From: Candidatus Gastranaerophilales bacterium
Lineage (GTDB): Bacteria > Cyanobacteriota > Vampirovibrionia > Gastranaerophilales > Gastranaerophilaceae
Length of the DNA stretch: 61,559 bases
Direction of reading: 5' to 3'
Assembly: GCA_944325155.1 (NCBI GenBank)
Contig: CALUYY010000011.1
Span: 1 to 61,559, forward strand
The position numbers were made by a program, and so were the translations under genes. Below are positions 16,231-24,569 of the stretch, piece by piece. The notes under the pieces were generated by a model, which was given only the letters and a program-made list of their open reading frames with translations, was not told the DNA's origin and did no database searches. The first letter of the stretch is position 1; the number at the start of each line of letters is the position of its first letter.

Positions 16231-16470
16231 ATGAATATAACAGATACTAAAAAATTAGGAACTTATATTAAAAATGCCCGTAAGGAACAACATCTTACAC
16301 AAGCGGATTTGGCGATTGCTGCTAATGTCGGGGTAAGGTTTCTTGTTGACCTGGAAAACGGGAAAGAAACTGCTCAAATTGGGAAAGCCATAAGTGTTTG
16401 TCGTGCACTGGGGATTACAATAGATGTAAAATCTCCTTATGAAAAAATTTATGAGGTAGATTTTGAGTAA
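16231..16470 (+). CDS. hipB: HipB-type antitoxin, XRE/Cro helix-turn-helix
   Basis: A 79-residue protein with a helix-turn-helix: LGTYIKNARKEQHLTQADLA, recognition helix around NVGVRFLVDLENGK, then the LGITIDV strand typical of HipB-like proteins paired with HipA. It should bind HipA and repress the operon at the three upstream palindromes. It overlaps hipA by eight bases. Confidence 0.9.
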   Translation: MNITDTKKLGTYIKNARKEQHLTQADLAIAANVGVRFLVDLENGKETAQIGKAISVCRALGITIDVKSPYEKIYEVDFE

Positions 16471-17701
16471 TTCTTTAAATGTATTTTTGAACGATAAACA
16501 TATCGGAATATTAGAAAAAGACGGGAGTGGCGGTGTAAATTTCCAATATTCGAACGATGCAAATAGAATCTTATCTTTGAGTTTGCCAATTCAAAAAGAA
16601 CCTTTTGAAAACAAACAATGCAGAGGCTTTTTTAATGGATTATTACCTGAAAGCGAACATACAAGAATTGCTATTGGGAAAAAATACGGAATTAATCCTA
16701 AAAATGATTTTTCTATATTGCAAGCAATAGGTTATGATTGTGCAGGTGCTGTTTCTTTCTTTGATAGTGATGATGAACAAATACCTTCAAAATACTTGCA
16801 AGAGACCTATGAATTTGATTATACGCCATTGTCAGAAAATGCACTTGAAAAATTTATAAATGAACTGCCTCAAAAACCATTAGCAACAGGAATTGAGAAT
16901 ATGCGATTATCTTTAGCCGGTGCGCAGGATAAAACCTCTGTAATAGTTGTTGATGGGCAAATAGGAATTCCCAAAAATAACGTACCGACAAGCCATATTT
17001 TGAAACCTGCAATAAACGGATTTAATGAAACAATTGAAAATGAATTTATATGTATAAAATCAGCTGAAAAGTTAGGAATAAAAGTTCCTGCTATCAAAAT
17101 CGGTTATGCTAATAAAACAAAATATTTTTTAATTCAAAGATACGATAGAGAAGTAATTGATAATAAAATAAAAAGAATCCATCAAGAAGATTTTTGTCAG
17201 GCCTCCAACATTCCAAGCGCATACAAATATCAATCTGAAGGCGGTGTTGATTTTATAAGATGTTTTAAAATTTTAAGAGCGACCTCTCAACCTGCCGTCG
17301 CAATTAATCAGTTTATTCAATTAATGATTTTTAATTACTTGATAGGAAATAATGATGCCCATGGCAAAAATTTTTCTATACTGCATTATGACAATGGAGA
17401 AATAAAATTTGCACCTGCATACGATATTTTATGCTCCCAAGTTTATCTTGAATTATCAAATAAAATGGCAATGAAAATCGGCGGACATTATAAACATGAT
17501 GAGATTTTATTAAGGCATTTTGAAAAATTAGCAAATGAAAATGATATCAGTTTTACTCAGTTAAAAAAAGTTATAAAAAATCAGTGCGAAACCCTCCCAG
17601 ATATTGTCAATAATGTTATAAACAATTTTGAAAACAAAATCGGAAAAGATATTTTATTGGTAGTACAAAAAAATTGCACTAAATTATTAAAAGAATTTTA
17701 A
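16463..17701 (+). CDS. hipA: HipA-family serine/threonine kinase toxin
   Basis: A 412-residue HipA-like kinase. E. coli HipA phosphorylates glutamyl-tRNA synthetase and induces dormancy. The N-terminal ~100 residues form the HipA N1 domain (NVFLNDKHIGIL, GFFNGLLPES). The kinase part has LAGAQDKTS near 150, HILKP, FLIQRYDRE, catalytic IGNNDAHGKNF near 291-304 and the metal-binding PAYDILC near 317-323. Catalytic Asp and Asn are present, so it looks active. The start is a TTG at 16463 preceded by GAGGT and overlapping hipB. A terminator follows at 17708. Confidence 0.93.
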   Translation: MSNSLNVFLNDKHIGILEKDGSGGVNFQYSNDANRILSLSLPIQKEPFENKQCRGFFNGLLPESEHTRIAIGKKYGINPKNDFSILQAIGYDCAGAVSFFDSDDEQIPSKYLQETYEFDYTPLSENALEKFINELPQKPLATGIENMRLSLAGAQDKTSVIVVDGQIGIPKNNVPTSHILKPAINGFNETIENEFICIKSAEKLGIKVPAIKIGYANKTKYFLIQRYDREVIDNKIKRIHQEDFCQASNIPSAYKYQSEGGVDFIRCFKILRATSQPAVAINQFIQLMIFNYLIGNNDAHGKNFSILHYDNGEIKFAPAYDILCSQVYLELSNKMAMKIGGHYKHDEILLRHFEKLANENDISFTQLKKVIKNQCETLPDIVNNVINNFENKIGKDILLVVQKNCTKLLKEF

Positions 17702-17880: not shown

Positions 17881-18421
17881 ATGAATGTAGTACAACCTAT
17901 AAAAAAGCTAGAAGATATTCAAAAGATTAAAAAATATTTGGCAAAAAAGCCTAGAGATTCACTGCTTTTTAGTTTCGGGATAAATACGGGACTAAGAATA
18001 TCAGATATATTATCGCTTGATGTTAGGGATGTAAAAGGCAAGGATTATATCGAAATTAGAGAGAAAAAGACGAATAAGTATAAGAAATTCCCGCTTAATA
18101 GGTTTTTGAAGGAGGAGATTGATTTATTTATAGAAGGCTTGCCAAGTGAGCAACCGCTTTTTTATACTCAAAAACATTGCAGGCTTGATAGAGCACAGGC
18201 GTATAGAATTTTGAATAATGCAGCACAAGCCGTTGGGGTAAAGGAAAGAATCGGAACACATACACTGAGAAAGACATTTGGGTATCATCATTATAAAAAA
18301 TATAATGATATAGTACTTCTTATAAAAAATCTTTAACCATTCTTCACCATCAGTAACACTTCGCTACATTGGCATTGAACAAGACACAATCGACGAAAGT
18401 TACATGAATTTTTATTTATAA
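17881..18421 (+). pseudogene. Tyrosine recombinase/integrase catalytic domain, frameshifted
   Basis: The first frame gives 151 residues: catalytic Arg in GLRISDILSL, the beta-hairpin Lys (EKKTNKYKK) and HTLRKTFGYH with His and Arg. It then stops at 18334-18336. In another frame the text continues at once with IFNHSSPSVTLRYIGI, supplying the missing second His and nucleophile Tyr, to a stop at 18419-18421. One extra A in a run of six A at 18324-18329 explains the shift. There is no N-terminal arm-binding domain, so it is a minimal or already truncated integrase. It marks the island as formerly mobile. A base-calling error in the A run is the alternative. Confidence 0.85.
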
Positions 18422-18480
18422 AAGTATGCCTAATTTTTTGCACGATATGAGATTTGTATTCTGCTTGATAATTATTGTAT

Positions 18481-19242
18481 TTAATTCTCCGATAGATATT
18501 TAAAAATAATATTTTGTATTTCTGTTTCAGAAAGGAAATCAACGTTTGTTACTGCGGCATAGCGACGGAAATATTTTATACATTTTCTGACTAATTCGGA
18601 ATTAATATTTTCTGTAACTTCGCCCTTATATTGCTCTATTGCAAGTAATATCCCGGTTATTATTGTTTTATTACCGCAGAATGGTGTATCAAGAATATCT
18701 GCACATATTTGTTGTCCTGTAAATAATATTTGGGTTAAGTGATATGGATCGCTGTGATTTTTATCGTACGTAAGAAAGCCAGCCCACCACAGTCTTGAAA
18801 TTGCATTCATTCTCATAATGTCTTTTTTATTTGAAGAACAGAAAAAGCGTTTTTGGATAGTTTTAACTGTGCCTTCATGTTTATCCTCATCTTCAGGATT
18901 TTTTATCCAGCGGGCTATAACATATTTTTTGTATTTTGTATGACATAAATAGGACCATAAATATCCGTTAGTTGCAACTAACGGTGACAACGTTTTTAAT
19001 GCTTCATATATAAATCTTGTATTAACAATATCCGACTTGTTTTTTTCATCTGTGTTCATATCATTTTTAAAATCCAATTCGCTTGGTAAATTTGCACTAA
19101 TTGTGGATTCTCCGTAATATGGAATATTCGGTAATAAATCCTTTAACTCTACATCTGATGAAGCATAGAAATCAATGTTATTTTTTATATCTGCAAATAA
19201 ATTACCATATACTGTTTCATCAAAATATTTTAAATTAGCCAT
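18481..19242 (-). CDS. DUF6339-type protein of the GHKL defence operon
   Basis: A 253-residue protein whose pattern agrees with DUF6339 as I remember it: an N-terminal helical part, NTRFIYEALKTLSP, LWSYLCHTKY, a basic patch with KRFFCSS, and the NAISRLWWAGFLTYD core, with a helical C terminus. Function is unknown; family members occur beside restriction-type genes. A GGGAG site precedes the ATG at 19242, whose first base is also the last base of the 298-residue gene's stop. It is the last gene of the four-gene minus-strand operon. Assignment to DUF6339 is from memory of the family and needs a profile search. Confidence 0.65.
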   Translation of the reverse strand: MANLKYFDETVYGNLFADIKNNIDFYASSDVELKDLLPNIPYYGESTISANLPSELDFKNDMNTDEKNKSDIVNTRFIYEALKTLSPLVATNGYLWSYLCHTKYKKYVIARWIKNPEDEDKHEGTVKTIQKRFFCSSNKKDIMRMNAISRLWWAGFLTYDKNHSDPYHLTQILFTGQQICADILDTPFCGNKTIITGILLAIEQYKGEVTENINSELVRKCIKYFRRYAAVTNVDFLSETEIQNIIFKYLSEN

Positions 19243-20138
19243 TAATCAATACTCCCTATTTCATTTGAACCGTCAGCTAAACTGCTTAGTGCTTCCTCAA
19301 AATCAATTAATGCAGTTGAAACGATTTCTCCAAGCAGAGAACTTGCAACCGAAGTAATTGATTTATCTTCAAAAGATAATTTCTTTTCTTCTATTTTACG
19401 TTTAATTTGACGGTACCAGCGTTTATCTTCATAAACTGATGGTTTATCAGAGTTTTGTTCATCTGATGCAATATAAAAAAGAGCTTCAGTTAATGCAGGT
19501 AAAACTATTGCTGCTGCTAAATATTTATCTAAAACTTTTTGTGATCTTATTTTTATATAAGATTCGTAAGCTCTTTTATTTAAATGTATATTTATTTTTT
19601 CTGTATCAGTGTCTAAGATCACATCTACGGATTCTTTTAATTCCTCGTTTTTTATAATCTGAAAAATGGATGCAACAGGCCCTTCCAGTTCACTCGAGTC
19701 TAAAGGTAATGAATACCCCGGATGCAGTGCTAATATATCTCCTTTTCTTATATTGAAAATTTGAGATTTAAAGAATAACTCATTCAATTCAGCAGGGTGG
19801 AAATTTTTAATATTATCTGATGCAATAATATACCCCTCTATTGATATCTTTTTTGCTAAATTGTTCTTATTGATACAGATAAGTAGTTCTCTTTTATTAT
19901 CAAATTCAAATATTTCACGATAAGGAGTCCCAACGCTTTGAATTTTAATAATTGCTTTTGCCTTTCCTTCTTTTATAAATTCAGCAAGACTGCTACATTC
20001 AATTTCATATTTAAGGTTTAACTTTAGTAAATCATTATCAATGGAAAAATTTTCCAATATTACATCAAATGTTGAATCGTTATAATCCATATTATTGTTT
20101 ATTAGTACAGGATTTGGAAAATTATTTAGATTTTTCAT
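19242..20138 (-). CDS. Unrecognised 298-residue protein of the GHKL defence operon
   Basis: A 298-residue protein without a domain I can name. The N-terminal ~170 residues look beta-rich, with KAKAIIKIQSVGTPYREIFEF and an IRKGDILALHPGY segment. The C-terminal ~100 residues look helical (AAAIVLPALTEALFYIAS, then RWYRQIKRKIEEKKL). No nuclease, helicase or methylase motif is visible. A GGAGGAAG site precedes its ATG, which overlaps the GHKL stop by one base; the ends of neighbouring genes touch on both sides, so the three proteins are probably made in fixed proportion and may form a complex. Confidence 0.6.
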   Translation of the reverse strand: MKNLNNFPNPVLINNNMDYNDSTFDVILENFSIDNDLLKLNLKYEIECSSLAEFIKEGKAKAIIKIQSVGTPYREIFEFDNKRELLICINKNNLAKKISIEGYIIASDNIKNFHPAELNELFFKSQIFNIRKGDILALHPGYSLPLDSSELEGPVASIFQIIKNEELKESVDVILDTDTEKINIHLNKRAYESYIKIRSQKVLDKYLAAAIVLPALTEALFYIASDEQNSDKPSVYEDKRWYRQIKRKIEEKKLSFEDKSITSVASSLLGEIVSTALIDFEEALSSLADGSNEIGSID

Positions 20139-22063
20139 TATTCAACTTCCTCCATAATATCCATATTTATCAACATTTTTTCTTTGTTTTCAAATGTTAC
20201 AAATATTTCTTTAGCCTCATCTTTTTCAATTACAATAGGTCCGATTTTAGTATTATTACAAGGTGTCGTTTGCTTATCTAGAGTATATTTTTCAACAATA
20301 ATTTTATCGTTTGAATCACCCTCGCCTATTGCTGAAAATGCAATATACAAAGAGTTACAATCTTCAGTCGGGCACAAAATTATTTTATAGAGACCTACAT
20401 CCTGGCTAACGGCAGTTATACGCTGATACTTTATATTAGGATAGGTTGTTAATTTTTTAGTTCCGTTTTGTGGTGAAATACCTTTACTTTTATTTTCATC
20501 TGGATCGTTATATCTCTCTACTTTATTTTTGGGTTTATATTCCGGGAATCTATAAGCTGAATCTGAAGAATTATTTATTAAACTTTCGTCATGGATCTCT
20601 TTGCCTTCATCAGTTCCTGCTACGTCTATGTTTTCATTCATAAATATTTTTTGTAATTTGGGTTTTTCTACGATTTTTATAACCGGTTTTAATTTATCCG
20701 TTCCCGGTTTATTTTCGGACAAATTGCTTAAATCGTCAGGTAAAAATTCCCCGACCCCCGAATCAACACTGTCAGAAATTTCTTCACTGTAAATGTTTGA
20801 TATTGAAAATAAAATTTCATTATCGATTTGTTCAATGTACTTTTGCGCTTGCTTTGCTTCTTCTTTATCTTCTATTCTTTTTGCGTCCCATATATTATGC
20901 TTCGGAGGTTCTGTTTTTCTTAATATTTCATTTAAATTTTTACCCCTAACAATTACGACAGCCGTAAAATTTTGATATGTGCGTTTACCATGCTCCCAAA
21001 CAAGCATCCCCGAAGATCTGAATTTTGCTATTTTTCTTTTATAATCAGGCTTAGATTTAAGATAAATTTCCAAATCGTTTTCATCAATAATTGTTTTATA
21101 AATAACCCCACCTTCAGGAGAAGTTAGTGTTTCATAAAAATTAGATGTTAAAAAAGAATTTGTATTGACATTTTTATACTTTTCAATCAGTACAGGGAGA
21201 GTTTCATTGTTAATAACGTCAGTTTCTACTTTTACAATCAGCTTCTTTTCCTTTATTGCCAAAAGAAAATGATGTAATACCGCTTGAACCAGTTTATCTT
21301 GCCAATCACTATTTTTTTCTATAAATGAATTACAACCGACAATTATTATATCAGTACCATATTTTTTTCTTGCAAACATATCACGAATCGGACAGGCAAT
21401 ATCTTCCGTAATCGGTTTATAGTGTTCATCAGAACGATAATGCCCGATAGCTTGTGTAAGATCTTTTTTATCATTCATAAGCGTAGCTGCTCTTGCTACA
21501 CCTTCCATTGCCTTTTTGTTATCTTTTGCATAAGTATTATAAAAAACAAGACTGAGGTCAGAGCATGCGAACGGAGCATTTTTACCTATACCGTAAGACC
21601 CCCCGGCATCTTCAGATTTATCCGATATACCATCAGAATTTACAAGAGCACTCCATATAGATGATTCCATCATTCCACAATCAGAGCCAATTAATCCCGT
21701 AGTGTTATAATCACTTGCAGATAGCACCTTTATTTGATTTTCTGCAATTACCTTTTCTGCCCTATCCAGAAATTGCATTACCCTTTTATCATTTTTATCT
21801 TGCCAAAAACTTTTACCACCTTTTAAATATTCAGAATATTCACGTAAAAACGGATGCTCTTCTTTTGTGATCGTGGCTAATTTAAATTCAACAGTTACGG
21901 GTTCACAGGAATCAGGATCTTTTGCATCTAATGAATTTTGACATATTTCTCTTGCTAAATTATCAAGTAATTCAGTCCCTTTAAATGTTTCTATACCACT
22001 GTTTGTATAACCTTGCTTTTGCCCGCCGTCTAATTCGGGAAAATCCCATCTTGCATTCGCCAT
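20138..22063 (-). CDS. GHKL ATPase (MutL/MORC-like) of a restriction-type locus
   Basis: A 641-residue protein with a complete GHKL ATP-binding domain at its N terminus: Glu39, Asn43 and Asp46 in REICQNSLDAK, Asp118 in SDYNTTGL and the lid GGSYGIGK at 154-161. Middle residues (~170-400) fit a ribosomal-S5-like transducer. The C-terminal ~240 residues are charged, low-complexity in part (~400-520), and unassigned. MutL/MORC-like ATPases in restriction-modification loci with Vsr have been described as likely DNA clamps. No HATPase/kinase partner domain (HisKA) is present, so it is not a sensor kinase. AAGGAG precedes the ATG. Confidence 0.8.
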   Translation of the reverse strand: MANARWDFPELDGGQKQGYTNSGIETFKGTELLDNLAREICQNSLDAKDPDSCEPVTVEFKLATITKEEHPFLREYSEYLKGGKSFWQDKNDKRVMQFLDRAEKVIAENQIKVLSASDYNTTGLIGSDCGMMESSIWSALVNSDGISDKSEDAGGSYGIGKNAPFACSDLSLVFYNTYAKDNKKAMEGVARAATLMNDKKDLTQAIGHYRSDEHYKPITEDIACPIRDMFARKKYGTDIIIVGCNSFIEKNSDWQDKLVQAVLHHFLLAIKEKKLIVKVETDVINNETLPVLIEKYKNVNTNSFLTSNFYETLTSPEGGVIYKTIIDENDLEIYLKSKPDYKRKIAKFRSSGMLVWEHGKRTYQNFTAVVIVRGKNLNEILRKTEPPKHNIWDAKRIEDKEEAKQAQKYIEQIDNEILFSISNIYSEEISDSVDSGVGEFLPDDLSNLSENKPGTDKLKPVIKIVEKPKLQKIFMNENIDVAGTDEGKEIHDESLINNSSDSAYRFPEYKPKNKVERYNDPDENKSKGISPQNGTKKLTTYPNIKYQRITAVSQDVGLYKIILCPTEDCNSLYIAFSAIGEGDSNDKIIVEKYTLDKQTTPCNNTKIGPIVIEKDEAKEIFVTFENKEKMLINMDIMEEVE

Positions 22064-22072
22064 ATATTCTCC

Positions 22073-22291
22073 TTACAGTTCAAACTTATTCTTTTTTGTG
22101 CTTTTTATAAATTTAGCCTTTGATGCTTTTACTTCCGCTTCGATTGCATTAAAAATTTTTTTAACATCATTTTCTGAATATTCATAATTCCCTGTATTAG
22201 AGCAATTGCCCAGCAATTTTAACATATCTAAAATTTTATTTGTTCTTGCACCTGCAATTCTTTTAAAGCGTTGTCGTCTGGTTTCTTCCAT
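22073..22291 (-). CDS. Small 72-residue protein leading the GHKL operon
   Basis: A 72-residue basic, helical protein (RRQRFKRIAGARTNKILDML, LLGNCSNTGNYEYSENDVKKIF). I do not recognise a named family, but the charge and two-helix layout would suit a small DNA- or RNA-binding regulator. It has a strong AAGGGG site and ends nine bases before the GHKL gene. As first gene, facing dcm across a palindrome, it is a candidate regulator of the locus; this is inference. Confidence 0.65.
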   Translation of the reverse strand: MEETRRQRFKRIAGARTNKILDMLKLLGNCSNTGNYEYSENDVKKIFNAIEAEVKASKAKFIKSTKKNKFEL

Positions 22292-22382
22292 GCAATACCC
22301 CTTTTATTTCATATTAATTATTTTATATATAAAACATTTTGTCAATATTTTGTAAATATATATTAAATTTATATATATAAAG

Positions 22383-22403
22383 CCTATATTTTTCAAATAT
22401 AGG
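22383..22403. promoter_or_regulatory. Palindrome in the divergent dcm/GHKL control region
   Basis: A perfect 9-bp inverted repeat with three-base centre (CCTATATTT-TTC-AAATATAGG) in the 176-base region between the divergent operons. The surrounding DNA is extremely AT-rich with TATATATAAA stretches at 22369-22381, and a TATAAA box lies at 22440-22445 before dcm. It is a likely operator coordinating methyltransferase and effector expression. Confidence 0.5.
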
Positions 22404-22467
22404 GGATTATAAAGAAACTGGCTATTTCTCTATTTTTGATATAAAGTAGATTTAGGAAGATACGGCT

Positions 22468-23556
22468 ATGCATAAAGAAAAGAGCAAAATTAAAGTGTTT
22501 GATTTCTTCTCAGGCTGCGGAGGGACAAGCGAAGGCCTTCGAGAAGCAGGTATGGATATAGTTTTAGGCCTGGATAATAATAAAGAAGCATTAAAAACCT
22601 TTGAAAGGAATATTAAACCGGAATGTGGTACAATACCTGATGATATAACATTGGTAGAAACAACCAGAATTAAAAATATAGTAGATAAATACAGAATTAG
22701 CGGAAATCGTATTTTATTTTGTGGATGTGCACCATGCCAACCGTTTTCAACACAGAATAAAAAACGATTTGATTCAAAAGATGAACGTATAAATCTTTTA
22801 AGTGAGTTTTTAAGGTTTGTAGAAGACTGTCAACCAGATTTTATATTATGTGAAAATGTACCAGGATTGCAAAAAATTGATAAAGACGGTCCTTTACCAA
22901 ATTTTATCAGTAAACTTGAAAGCATGGGCTATCATGTCCCCGTTCCTCAGGTAGTACATGCCGAAGATTATGGTGTGCCACAAAGAAGAAAAAGATTAGT
23001 ATTAATTGCAAGTAAACTCGGTGAATTAACTTATCCTGAGAAAAAATACGGTACAAAGCCAGGATTACTACCATTTAAAACCGTTAGAGACGCTATCGGA
23101 AACGGGCAATATCCTGTATTAAAACACGGAGAAGAATGCAAGGATAAAAAATATGCAAATCACAGATCTGCAGCTTTATCAGAATTAAATTTAGAAAGAA
23201 TACGATGCATAAAAGAGGGGCAAGGCAGAAAAGACTGGCCAGAAGAACTTATGCTTAAATGTCATAAAAAACATGAAGGTCATTCTGATGTATATGGGAG
23301 ACTTGAATGGGACAAGCCGTCCGTTACTTTGACAACAAAATGCACAAATATTTCTAACGGTAGATATGGTCATCCAGAACAGGATAGAGCACTAAGTGTA
23401 AGAGAAGCTGCTAAACTACAAACATTTCCTGATGATTTTGTATTTGAGGGCAATAGTCTTGGGTCTTTAGCAAGACAAGTTGGTAATGCGGTTCCAGTAT
23501 TACTTGCCAAAACTTTTGGAAAAATGTTTATAGAACACAATAAAAAGCATAGCTAA
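22468..23556 (+). CDS. dcm: DNA (cytosine-5) methyltransferase
   Basis: A 362-residue C5 methyltransferase with all key motifs: FFSGCGG at 13-19 (SAM), catalytic Cys90 in GCAPCQPFS, ENV at 129-131, QRRKR at 172-176, and the C-terminal LSVREAAKLQTFPDDF with RQVGNAVP. The target-recognition region (~195-310) is unassigned, so the target is not readable; Vsr next door suggests a Dcm-like CC(A/T)GG-type site. It lacks the N-terminal DNA-binding extension that lets some Dcm enzymes autoregulate. AGGAAG precedes the ATG. It ends convergently with vsr, the stop codons overlapping by four bases. Confidence 0.95.
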   Translation: MHKEKSKIKVFDFFSGCGGTSEGLREAGMDIVLGLDNNKEALKTFERNIKPECGTIPDDITLVETTRIKNIVDKYRISGNRILFCGCAPCQPFSTQNKKRFDSKDERINLLSEFLRFVEDCQPDFILCENVPGLQKIDKDGPLPNFISKLESMGYHVPVPQVVHAEDYGVPQRRKRLVLIASKLGELTYPEKKYGTKPGLLPFKTVRDAIGNGQYPVLKHGEECKDKKYANHRSAALSELNLERIRCIKEGQGRKDWPEELMLKCHKKHEGHSDVYGRLEWDKPSVTLTTKCTNISNGRYGHPEQDRALSVREAAKLQTFPDDFVFEGNSLGSLARQVGNAVPVLLAKTFGKMFIEHNKKHS

Positions 23557-23969
23557 CTGCCTTTTGACATTTCAATAAAATTTATGACTTTCTGCATTGT
23601 CTTTTCAAAATCATTTTTTAGTTCGTGTTCCCAAATTCTGAGGATGTTCCAATTATTTGATTTGTAATATTCTGTTACCAGAGCATCTCTTTTTTGGTTT
23701 CCTGATATTTTATTATCCCAAAATTCAAAATTTGTAGAAGGTGATTTATAATGAATTGGACATTTGTGCCAAAAACATGAATCAATAAAAATTGCCAACT
23801 TGTATTTCTTAATTGCCACATCAGGCTTTCCCTCAAGATCTTTTACATTTTTCCTGAATCTGTAACCAAGTTGCCATAAATAAGTCATAACCTTGTTTTC
23901 AAGTTTGGTATTTTTGCCTTTTACCGCTTGCATGTTTTTATGTCGTTGTTCTTTTGTGTGTCTATCCAT
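23553..23969 (-). CDS. vsr: Very short patch repair endonuclease
   Basis: A 138-residue Vsr nuclease, which nicks T:G mismatches made by deamination of 5-methylcytosine. Landmarks: N-terminal RHTKEQRHKNMQAVKGKNTKLE, catalytic Asp50 in GKPDVAI and FIDSCFWHKCP with His68 and zinc-type cysteines. The position of the second E. coli active-site His holds Asp63. It is usual next to Dcm methylases. There is no Shine-Dalgarno; TAAAAT lies six bases before the ATG, again suggesting a leaderless message. Confidence 0.93.
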   Translation of the reverse strand: MDRHTKEQRHKNMQAVKGKNTKLENKVMTYLWQLGYRFRKNVKDLEGKPDVAIKKYKLAIFIDSCFWHKCPIHYKSPSTNFEFWDNKISGNQKRDALVTEYYKSNNWNILRIWEHELKNDFEKTMQKVINFIEMSKGS

Positions 23970-24064
23970 AAAGAAATTTTAATACAAAATAACAATTATC
24001 GAAAATATCAGTTGATTTTATTTTAACTTCGAGTGATGAATACGACACCTAAAAAGGAGGTCGT

Positions 24065-24235
24065 ATGAGTAAGAGTAAGAAATACAAGATTAAACAAAAA
24101 GATTTTAGGAAGTTAGAAAAATTAGCTGAGCGGATTTATAACACTTCTGTTGTTATTGATTATTTTTGCAGGACGCAACAAGAGATTGAAGAGCTGTATA
24201 ATCTTACTCCAATAGTTGAAAATTTAGAAATTTAG
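24065..24235 (+). CDS. Small 56-residue protein with a perfect Shine-Dalgarno
   Basis: ATG at 24065 opens 56 codons to TAG at 24233. The product is basic at the start (MSKSKKYKIKQKDFRKLEKL) and acidic at the end, predicted as two helices. AGGAGGT lies five bases before the ATG, the best ribosome site in the window, which supports a real gene. No family is recognised. It lies alone between vsr and tRNA-Val. Confidence 0.65.
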   Translation: MSKSKKYKIKQKDFRKLEKLAERIYNTSVVIDYFCRTQQEIEELYNLTPIVENLEI

Positions 24236-24286
24236 AAAAAGTTCTTTTTTTGGCTCAGGGTGGTTAAATTTCAAAAGCAATATAAA

Positions 24287-24309
24287 AAAAGAGGTCATAG
24301 ACCTCTTTT
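24287..24309 (-). terminator. Terminator downstream of tRNA-Val
   Basis: A 10-bp perfect stem (AAAAGAGGTC / GACCTCTTTT) with a 3-base loop. On the minus strand it is followed by a seven-base T run, so it best serves tRNA-Val; on the plus strand it could also end the small gene. Confidence 0.8.
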
Positions 24310-24315
24310 AAATGG

Positions 24316-24388
24316 TGGGCGTTGAGGGATTCGAACCCCCGACCCTCTCCTTGTAAGGGAGACGCTCTACCAGCTGAGCTAAACGCCC
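24316..24388 (-). tRNA. tRNA-Val (TAC)
   Basis: A 73-nt cloverleaf: acceptor GGGCGTT/AACGCCC, anticodon stem TCTCC/GGAGA, loop CTTACAA, anticodon TAC. Unlike the other tRNAs here, a CCA follows directly in the genome (24313-24315). It borders the accessory island on its 3' side and has an unusual repeated leader on its 5' side. Confidence 0.95.
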
Positions 24389-24389
24389 T

Positions 24390-24569
24390 TGTAATTATTC
24401 AGTTTTATCGCGTCTCCCTGCGGGAGACTTTACATTATTAAAAAGCTTTACGCTTTTTAATCAGCCGAGCTAAACACTCTATGAATTATTTGGTTTTAAC
24501 TCATTCCCTTGCGGGAAGTTTTATTTTAAAAAGCTTTACGCTTTTTAAGCAGCTGAGCTAAACGCCCTT
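24390..24569 (-). repeat. Tandem tRNA-Val 5'-end mimics with hairpins in the tRNA leader
   Basis: Two imperfect repeats of 88-91 bases precede tRNA-Val. Each contains a copy of the tRNA 5' end: 24550-24569 is identical to the first 20 bases including the AAG lead-in, and 24462-24480 is a diverged copy. Each copy is followed by an identical 23-nt hairpin (24526-24548 and 24438-24460; stem TTAAAAAGC/GCTTTTTAA) and then a GC-rich hairpin (TTCCC/GGGAA at 24504-24517; GTCTCCC/GGGAGAC at 24412-24428). The rest of the tRNA is absent from both copies. They would be transcribed from the promoter at 24603. Confidence 0.8.

What the first reader, a model, noticed from the sequence alone, without database searches (positions are those of the whole stretch)
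18481..23969. Compact Dcm-Vsr-GHKL-DUF6339 defence-type locus
Seen: one operon of a 72-aa basic protein, a GHKL ATPase with all ATP motifs, an unassigned 298-aa protein and a DUF6339-like protein, with one-base overlaps at GHKL/298-aa and at 298-aa/DUF6339. It diverges from a complete Dcm methylase that converges with Vsr. Known: MutL/MORC-like GHKL ATPases were described in restriction-modification loci with Vsr, often with Z1 and PD-(D/E)XK proteins. Here no helicase, Z1 or canonical nuclease other than Vsr is visible. Inference: either the 298-aa or DUF6339 protein carries an unrecognised effector activity, or Vsr and GHKL form the effector, making this a reduced or new variant.
Basis: partly seen in the sequence, partly recalled or inferred. 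Interest (0 to 1): 0.72.

Follow-up and report, generated by a model that had tools for sequence, protein, structure and literature searches.

The report
Swappable ATPase module beside a DNA methylase
A bacterium carries a mobile six-gene cassette that pairs a DNA-marking enzyme and its repair partner with a three-protein ATPase unit found in many microbes; the unit sits where a DNA-cutting enzyme often sits, yet no cutting enzyme can be recognised in it.

Summary
In detail: six intact genes, with TAATG overlaps at A/B and B/C. The GHKL-298aa-DUF6339 triad is already catalogued in PADLOC as an unpublished candidate, PDC-M33 (A, B, C). M33A shows the GHKL motifs and the ExxxH mark of paraMORC2 ATPases, by motif only. 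A 72-aa protein (S72) precedes A in 29 of 42 compared loci. In 398 genomes of one phylum, full-length A, B and C occur in the same 8 genomes, adjacent. Distances correlate within ABC (0.95-0.98) and Dcm-Vsr (0.92) more than between A and Dcm (0.61): two exchangeable modules. One same-family relative shares Dcm, Vsr and S72 with the window but carries Clostridia-type ABC. In other relatives the place beside Dcm-Vsr holds HpaII, EcoRII, NgoFVII or GHKL+Z1. The cassette (18476-23993) moves as a unit and contains no recognisable restriction enzyme. Models of B and C gave no nuclease match. Best reading: M33 is the restriction-side module of an m5C-marked system, and Vsr is the methylase's repair partner, not the effector. 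Against it, 9 of 31 Dcm-linked M33 loci also carry a restriction enzyme and some loci show no methylase. No activity was tested.

The parts
18476..23993 (.). six-gene cassette that moves as a unit
   Evidence: matches L009 8071-13585 at 90.7% over 5521 columns; beyond it only one short match (window 24134-24221); window 1-32000 compared; neighbours differ
18481..19242 (-). M33C, DUF6339 protein, 253 aa, predicted mostly helical
   Evidence: PF19866 2.4e-46; PDC-M33C 1.4e-50; model pLDDT 92.2
19242..20138 (-). M33B, 298 aa, Ig/FN3-like N-terminal sandwich, helical C-terminal part
   Evidence: PDC-M33B 4.2e-50; model pLDDT 81.9, pTM 0.51; fold matches span residues 10-148
20138..22063 (-). M33A, 641 aa, GHKL/paraMORC2-type ATPase (by motif)
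   Evidence: PDC-M33A 1.3e-153; GHKL motif columns and ExxxH invariant in 27 of 27 aligned
22073..22291 (-). S72, 72-aa small protein ahead of A
   Evidence: relatives ahead of A in 29 of 42 M33 loci; alignment A4; no PADLOC match
22292..22467 (.). intergenic region between the divergent S72 and Dcm starts, presumably holding both promoters
   Evidence: coordinates only; promoters were not scanned
22468..23556 (+). cytosine-5 DNA methylase (Dcm), 362 aa
   Evidence: PF00145 1.7e-61; TIGR00675 5.9e-49
23553..23969 (-). Vsr mismatch endonuclease, 138 aa
   Evidence: TIGR00632 3.7e-41; aligns to E. coli Vsr 1cw0 at 4.8e-20
24313..24388 (-). tRNA-Val at which same-genus similarity begins; variable site beside the cassette
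   Evidence: ARAGORN; four same-genus stretches match the window only from 24285-24306 rightwards, one of them ending about 1 kb beyond

Best explanation
A mobile R-M-like cassette in which Dcm marks self DNA with 5-methylcytosine, Vsr repairs T:G mismatches left by deamination of that mark, and S72-A-B-C (PDC-M33) is the exchangeable restriction-side module. Shown: composition, conservation, block-wise exchange, GHKL motifs, no recognised restriction enzyme in the cassette. Inferred: A is an ATP-driven GHKL clamp, B (Ig-like plus helices) and C (helical DUF6339) are obligate partners, and the complex acts on invading DNA that lacks the methylase's mark, either by an unrecognised nuclease activity in A, B or C or by clamping DNA so that it cannot replicate or be expressed.
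For: A, B, C together: same 8 of 398 genomes, adjacent; distances correlate at 0.95-0.98. Dcm+Vsr is a second unit (r 0.92; A-Dcm 0.61). Block swap in L020: to the window S72 74, Dcm 81, Vsr 77% but A 42, B 37, C 41%; to Clostridia L019 A 69, B 61, C 78% but Dcm 24%. Dcm tree of 36 rows: M33 linkage needs 7 changes, at least 6 forced by well-supported branches. Slot: in 6 of 19 fetched relatives' Vsr regions a profile-confirmed partner lies beside Dcm-Vsr: EcoRII, HpaII (two), NgoFVII, HATPase_c_3+Z1, or a two-HATPase protein. 31 of 42 M33 loci have a C5 methylase within 6.5 kb. Cassette edges are tight against L009.
Against: 9 of the 31 Dcm-linked loci also carry a profile-recognised restriction enzyme (HpaII 3, EcoRII-C 2, NgoFVII 2, MutH 1, Mrr 1), so M33 is not always the only restriction candidate. 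L062, L064, L065, L066 and L097 show no R-M gene by eye in the stretch, so M33 may need no mark. Even the A-Dcm correlation (0.61) exceeds all 2000 permutations: the modules are exchanged, not independent. No nuclease match for B or C. GHKL rests on motifs, not profile scores. No activity data found.
Confidence: 0.45

Rival explanations
1. S72-A-B-C is an autonomous anti-phage module that does not read the methylation mark. It travels with R-M systems as a companion or back-up, for example triggered when phage inhibits the R-M system, and also works alone.
For: Some loci show no methylase or restriction gene by eye (L062, L064, L065, L066, L097); partners include m5C methylases and, in L030, L088 and L090, N6-adenine methylases; 9 of 31 Dcm-linked loci have a recognised restriction enzyme as well; one group of 10 rows in the A tree is Dcm-less in 9 (support 94/86).
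Against: 31 of 42 loci have a C5 methylase nearby and the association recurs on deep branches. The window's clade of 18 is Dcm-linked in 18 of 18, and in many of these no restriction enzyme was recognised (lists cut), which would leave Dcm-Vsr without a partner.
Confidence: 0.28
2. The module is not an effector: it regulates or maintains the methylation system, or the cassette is a former R-M system that lost its restriction enzyme and persists as an orphan methylase with accessory genes.
For: No restriction enzyme recognised in or beside the five cassettes of the window's Dcm lineage (family lists cut at 25). In the Dcm tree the methylases of L016, L018, L019 and L025 are sister to that of L021, which has HpaII, although no HpaII enzyme was seen by eye beside the four.
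Against: A, B and C overlap or nearly touch and co-diverge over very long distances, were replaced as a block rather than lost in L020, and also occur where no R-M gene is seen.
Confidence: 0.15
3. Vsr and the GHKL protein together form the effector, like MutL-Vsr co-operation, with B and C as scaffold.
For: Vsr is the only recognised nuclease in the cassette; MutL-Vsr interaction in E. coli is recalled, and a reference to it stands in PMC2292703.
Against: 0 of 11 Dcm-less M33 loci have Vsr while 24 of 24 Vsr loci have Dcm; Vsr follows Dcm in divergence (0.92 against 0.72 with A) and its place varies (upstream, downstream, either strand); L017 has M33 and Dcm with no Vsr in its 8.7-kb contig.
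Confidence: 0.06

Closest known systems
PDC-M33 (PADLOC-DB 2.0 candidate system)
   Same: All three models match and the genes are adjacent: M33A 1.3e-153, M33B 4.2e-50, M33C 1.4e-50.
   Different: No PADLOC model matches the 72-aa gene. PDC systems are called unpublished candidates in PMC11811056 (passages); no held paper names PDC-M33. Whether PADLOC's system rule mentions Dcm or Vsr was not seen.
paraMORC2 GHKL ATPases in R-M loci (Iyer, Abhiman and Aravind 2008, PMC2292703)
   Same: GHKL motifs, the ExxxH motif given as the paraMORC2 mark, neighbourhood with cytosine methylases and Vsr, wide lateral spread (text parts 1-3; alignment).
   Different: That text stresses SFII helicases and RE-fold nucleases; the window has neither apart from Vsr. 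Its figure (domains X1-X3, Z1-Z3) is not held, so whether B and C were drawn there is unknown.
GHKL + Z1 helicase loci (Mza-like; the label is recalled, PADLOC gives an MzaC match for the Z1 protein of L061)
   Same: Also Dcm-Vsr-linked; seen in the same family (L127: Vsr, Dcm, HATPase_c_3, Z1).
   Different: No Z1 or PD-(D/E)XK gene in the window. Z1 beside M33 is profile-confirmed in L061 and L096; L095 has a similar-looking 946-aa ORF that was not scanned.
VcSduA, a Shedu nuclease with an N-terminal GHKL ATPase (PMC12137116)
   Same: GHKL ATPase in an experimentally protective phage-defence protein (passages).
   Different: There the nuclease is fused to the ATPase; M33A gives no Pfam nuclease match and has two separate partner proteins.
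HpaII, EcoRII and NgoFVII type II R-M systems with Vsr
   Same: Same Dcm-Vsr halves; their methylases interleave with M33-linked ones in the tree.
   Different: Their restriction enzyme is missing from the window cassette.

Membership tests
PDC-M33 | M33A, M33B and M33C encoded side by side | tested here: met
   for identity, for adjacency
PDC-M33 | anti-phage activity | not testable with these tools
   no experiment; no held paper under 'PDC-M33' or 'DUF6339'
paraMORC2 | GHKL ATP-binding motifs | tested here: met
   ExxQNxxD, DxxTxG and GxxGxG columns invariant in 27 of 27; reading them as GHKL boxes is from recall
paraMORC2 | detectable profile similarity to GHKL/HATPase families | tested here: inconclusive
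   no Pfam HATPase at E<=1; hhalign probability 1.7%, P 0.029, three motifs superposed
[quoted passage not shown]
   E385/H389 of the window protein; invariant in 27 of 27; a cruder pattern scan found it in 42 of 43
paraMORC2 | S5-fold domain after the GHKL domain | not tested
   A was not modelled
type II restriction-modification system | DNA methylase | tested here: met
   PF00145 1.7e-61
type II restriction-modification system | recognisable restriction endonuclease in the cassette | tested here: not met
   the six proteins scanned against Pfam, PADLOC and NCBIfam; only Vsr is a known nuclease
GHKL/Z1 (Mza-like) system | Z1 helicase and PD-(D/E)XK nuclease genes | tested here: not met
   none among the cassette proteins and the four neighbours scanned
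PD-(D/E)XK or other known nuclease (proteins B, C) | nuclease-like fold | tested here: inconclusive
   Foldseek and VIA-align searches of both models gave no convincing match; B after about residue 150 barely tested
Vsr family | Vsr domain and alignment to E. coli Vsr | tested here: met
   TIGR00632 140.2 bits against cut-off 97.85; 1cw0

The most novel reading that the evidence does not exclude
PDC-M33 is a restriction engine of a new type: a GHKL ATPase clamp with an Ig-like partner and a helical DUF6339 partner that inactivates DNA lacking the mark of whatever methylase it is paired with, through an activity outside the known nuclease folds, and that can be plugged into different methylase-Vsr pairs in place of a conventional restriction enzyme.
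Probability: 0.25. Interest if true: 0.82.

Novelty: new variant of a known kind. Interest (0 to 1): 0.52.

Why it matters
If M33 restricts unmarked DNA it would be an R-M system without a recognisable restriction enzyme, and it would give bacterial MORC-like ATPases a tractable phage-defence test case. The natural swap in L020 (window-type Dcm-Vsr-S72, Clostridia-type ABC) suggests that ABC need not match the methylase, which is directly testable.

Tried and rejected
Hidden nuclease in B or C: AlphaFold models searched against PDB and, for C, viral models. B: best Foldseek E 2.1e-3; in the VIA-align list the matches are Ig/FN3-type sandwiches or similar, best Z 8.5, 2.0 A over 82 residues. 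C: best PDB E 1.4, best VIA Z 5.5, 2.3 A over 65 residues. Neither shows that a fold is new or that no activity exists. A was not modelled (both jobs used).

PDB sequence searches with profiles of A, B, C and S72 gave no credible relative. PHROGs gave at best weak matches for the operon proteins.

Altered Vsr active site: the window has Asp where E. coli Vsr has the His of IFTHGCFWH. Of 22 proteins compared, 16 have Asp (window included), 2 Asn and 4 His, so this is an ordinary variant. Active-site roles are recalled.

Restriction enzyme beside cassettes that seemed to lack one: 34 neighbouring ORFs of 16 loci, chosen by eye, were scanned as a set (A8, not a real alignment). Among the 25 families shown of 79 (PADLOC) and 52 (Pfam) the only restriction-type one is GmrSD_N (one member); the lists are incomplete. 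L013 (7262-8011) and L023 (7968-9059) have neighbours that look HNH-like by eye; Pfam did not call the L023 one HNH.

hhalign of A against single GHKL, Z1 and EcoRII proteins gave nothing.

Of 26 plasmid records with M33A I opened 5; the single phage record was not opened. L022, L023 and L026 are near-copies and inflate counts; L017 and L068 come from one genome. The genome samples contain the centre genome, chosen because it has M33, so prevalence is slightly inflated. The Dcm tree used 22 M33 loci chosen because they have Vsr, and 14 others; L120 (near-copy), L126, L129 and L131 were not given, L134 had no Dcm.
Full report
WHAT IS THERE. The six ORFs lie at the stated places and are intact. 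On the minus strand 72 aa (S72), 641 aa (A), 298 aa (B) and 253 aa (C) follow each other, with TAATG overlaps at A/B and B/C; Dcm diverges from S72 and overlaps Vsr tail to tail by 4 bases. Pfam recognises only Dcm, Vsr and DUF6339 over a cut-off. PADLOC recognises the triad: PDC-M33A (1.3e-153), PDC-M33B (4.2e-50), PDC-M33C (1.4e-50). PDC systems are called unpublished candidates of Payne et al. in PMC11811056 (passages seen). The held library (open-licence PubMed Central, no bioRxiv) has no paper with 'PDC-M33' or 'DUF6339'. Record titles of relatives suggest a Gastranaerophilales-type host; this was not tested.

WHAT A IS. No sequence profile supports GHKL (no Pfam HATPase at E<=1 for A or for 10 divergent relatives; no PDB relative). 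But over 27 proteins, 15-33% identical to the first row, the invariant columns are E-Q-N-D of an ExxxNxxD box, D-T-G, G-G-G of GxxGxG, a G of the GTD motif, an R, and E/H of ExxxH. hhalign against three GHKL-type proteins (two of them Pfam-confirmed; the third by eye) superposes the three boxes, at P 0.029 and probability 1.7%. ExxxH is the mark that Iyer et al. 2008 give for paraMORC2 (PMC2292703, text parts 1-3 read; the figure is not held). I take A as a paraMORC2-type ATPase on motif evidence.

A, B, C ARE ONE UNIT. In 398 genomes of one phylum (the centre genome included) A hit 9 genomes (8 full length; the ninth, G354, two partial hits), B 8 and DUF6339 8; the 8 are the same genomes, the genes are adjacent, and 0 of 14 control genomes match. 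G354 has unrecognised ORFs in the B and C positions (L096). In 42 loci compared, the B profile is found in 36 and the C profile in 38 (C of L013 is cut by the contig end). The six loci without a B match (L091-L096) are among the most divergent and have an ORF in its place. M33A is sparse: 9 of 398, 9 of 395 and 5 of 193 genomes, partial hits and centre genomes included. S72 is found ahead of A in 29 of 42; it has no PADLOC match and also occurs without M33 in 11 viral stretches.

DCM AND VSR ARE A SECOND UNIT. Protein distances correlate at 0.977 (A-B), 0.959 (A-C), 0.950 (B-C), 0.831 (A-S72) and 0.923 (Dcm-Vsr), but 0.609 (A-Dcm) and 0.722 (A-Vsr) (36 loci given, 18-35 per pair; 0 of 2000 permutations reached any of these, so the modules are not independent either). 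Dcm lies within 6.5 kb in 31 of 42 loci; Vsr in 24 of 42, always with Dcm; 0 of the 11 Dcm-less loci have Vsr. Three of the 11 (L031, L032, L068) are cut by a contig end close by. The clearest case is L020, a same-family genome: to the window it has S72 74%, Dcm 81%, Vsr 77% but A 42%, B 37%, C 41%; its ABC are much nearer to Clostridia (L019: A 69, B 61, C 78%), whose Dcm is only 24% identical (tree). ABC was exchanged as a block behind S72.

WHAT SITS IN THE SLOT. Vsr occurs in 23 of 174 relatives; I fetched 19 regions around Vsr from those without full-length M33. Profile-confirmed partners lie beside Dcm-Vsr in 6 of 19: EcoRII (L116), HpaII (L122, where the ORF covers only the first 216 of 359 profile positions, and L123), NgoFVII (L125), HATPase_c_3 plus Z1 (L127), and a protein with two HATPase domains (L119). 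The other 13 are a near-copy (L120), are cut by contig ends, show no Dcm, or have a partner that was judged by eye only or not assigned. M33 loci add: HpaII with M33 in L015, L021, L099; EcoRII-C in L067, L090; NgoFVII in L063, L092; MutH in L089; Mrr in L019; Z1 in L096 and, without Dcm, in L061. So 9 of 31 Dcm-linked M33 loci have a recognised restriction enzyme; the rest were not all scanned. In the Dcm tree (22 M33-linked, 14 other rows) M33 linkage needs 7 changes, at least 6 forced by well-supported branches, although the label is clustered (2 of 500 shuffles as low). In the window's Dcm lineage (window, L009, L012, L013, L020) no restriction enzyme was recognised (cut lists; L013 has an HNH-looking neighbour by eye).

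MOBILITY. Against L009 the window (1-32000 compared) matches over 18476-23993 and, apart from one short match at 24134-24221, not beyond: the cassette is the moving unit. Four same-genus stretches match the window only from 24285-24306 rightwards, at tRNA-Val, one of them ending about 1 kb beyond, so the window's copy lies at a variable site. HipBA and a truncated tyrosine recombinase lie on its left.

B AND C. B's model (pLDDT 81.9, pTM 0.51) is an Ig/FN3-like sandwich followed by a largely helical part; C's (92.2, pTM 0.90) is helical apart from two strands in the first 50 residues. Searches gave no nuclease, and for C no convincing match at all. Invariant polar residues of C in 21 sequences are D71, N74 and S149.

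MECHANISM. I commit to: Dcm marks self, Vsr repairs the mark's mutagenic by-product, and S72-ABC is the exchangeable restriction-side module (0.45). The step from 'sits where a restriction enzyme often sits' to 'restricts' is inference. Loci where a restriction enzyme accompanies M33, and loci where no R-M gene is seen by eye (L062, L064, L065, L066, L097), keep the autonomous-module rival alive (0.28). Vsr as effector is the least likely (0.06).

NOVELTY. The components were named (PDC-M33; paraMORC2) and the R-M link of paraMORCs dates from 2008. Not met in the searches made: S72 as a frequent fourth gene, the two-module structure with a natural block swap, the slot comparison, and a cassette of this kind with no recognisable restriction enzyme.

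Noticed in passing
L039-L047, L049, L050 (IMG/VR contigs): Relatives of the 72-aa protein occur without M33 in the stretch, in several cases beside phage-type genes (terminase-, portal-, exonuclease- or integrase-like by eye); either a borrowed phage protein or a phage copy of a defence part.
   Followed up: partly
window 24313-24568: tRNA-Val with two degenerate copies of its 5' end (near 24462-24480 and 24548-24568); same-genus genomes match these repeats too, marking an old hot spot.
   Followed up: partly
window 16231-17701: HipB/HipA-type toxin-antitoxin pair next to the cassette.
   Followed up: no
window 17881-18336: Tyrosine-recombinase-like ORF of 151 aa, apparently truncated; a similar-looking ORF lies downstream of the cassette in L020 (9092-9631).
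   Followed up: no
L094 6583-8442: A second, GHKL-looking protein (619 aa, by eye) sits between Dcm and M33A.
   Followed up: no
L098 8372-11921 (G1003): An M33 locus with A split into three ORFs, so decaying or mis-assembled.
   Followed up: no
L129 6272-6511 (G090): Vsr fragment 89% identical to the window's over 80 aa at a contig end, perhaps another copy of this cassette.
   Followed up: no
L119, L120: Dcm with a HATPase_c/HATPase_c_3 protein, a second protein and Vsr in the same bacterial family, resembling the HK-like/RR-like R-M systems of PMC8011034 (passages).
   Followed up: no
L087 (Lactococcus plasmid NZ_CP065734.1): M33A with the start of B at the record end, on a plasmid that also carries an annotated AlwI-type R-M system and IS6 transposases.
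   Followed up: no
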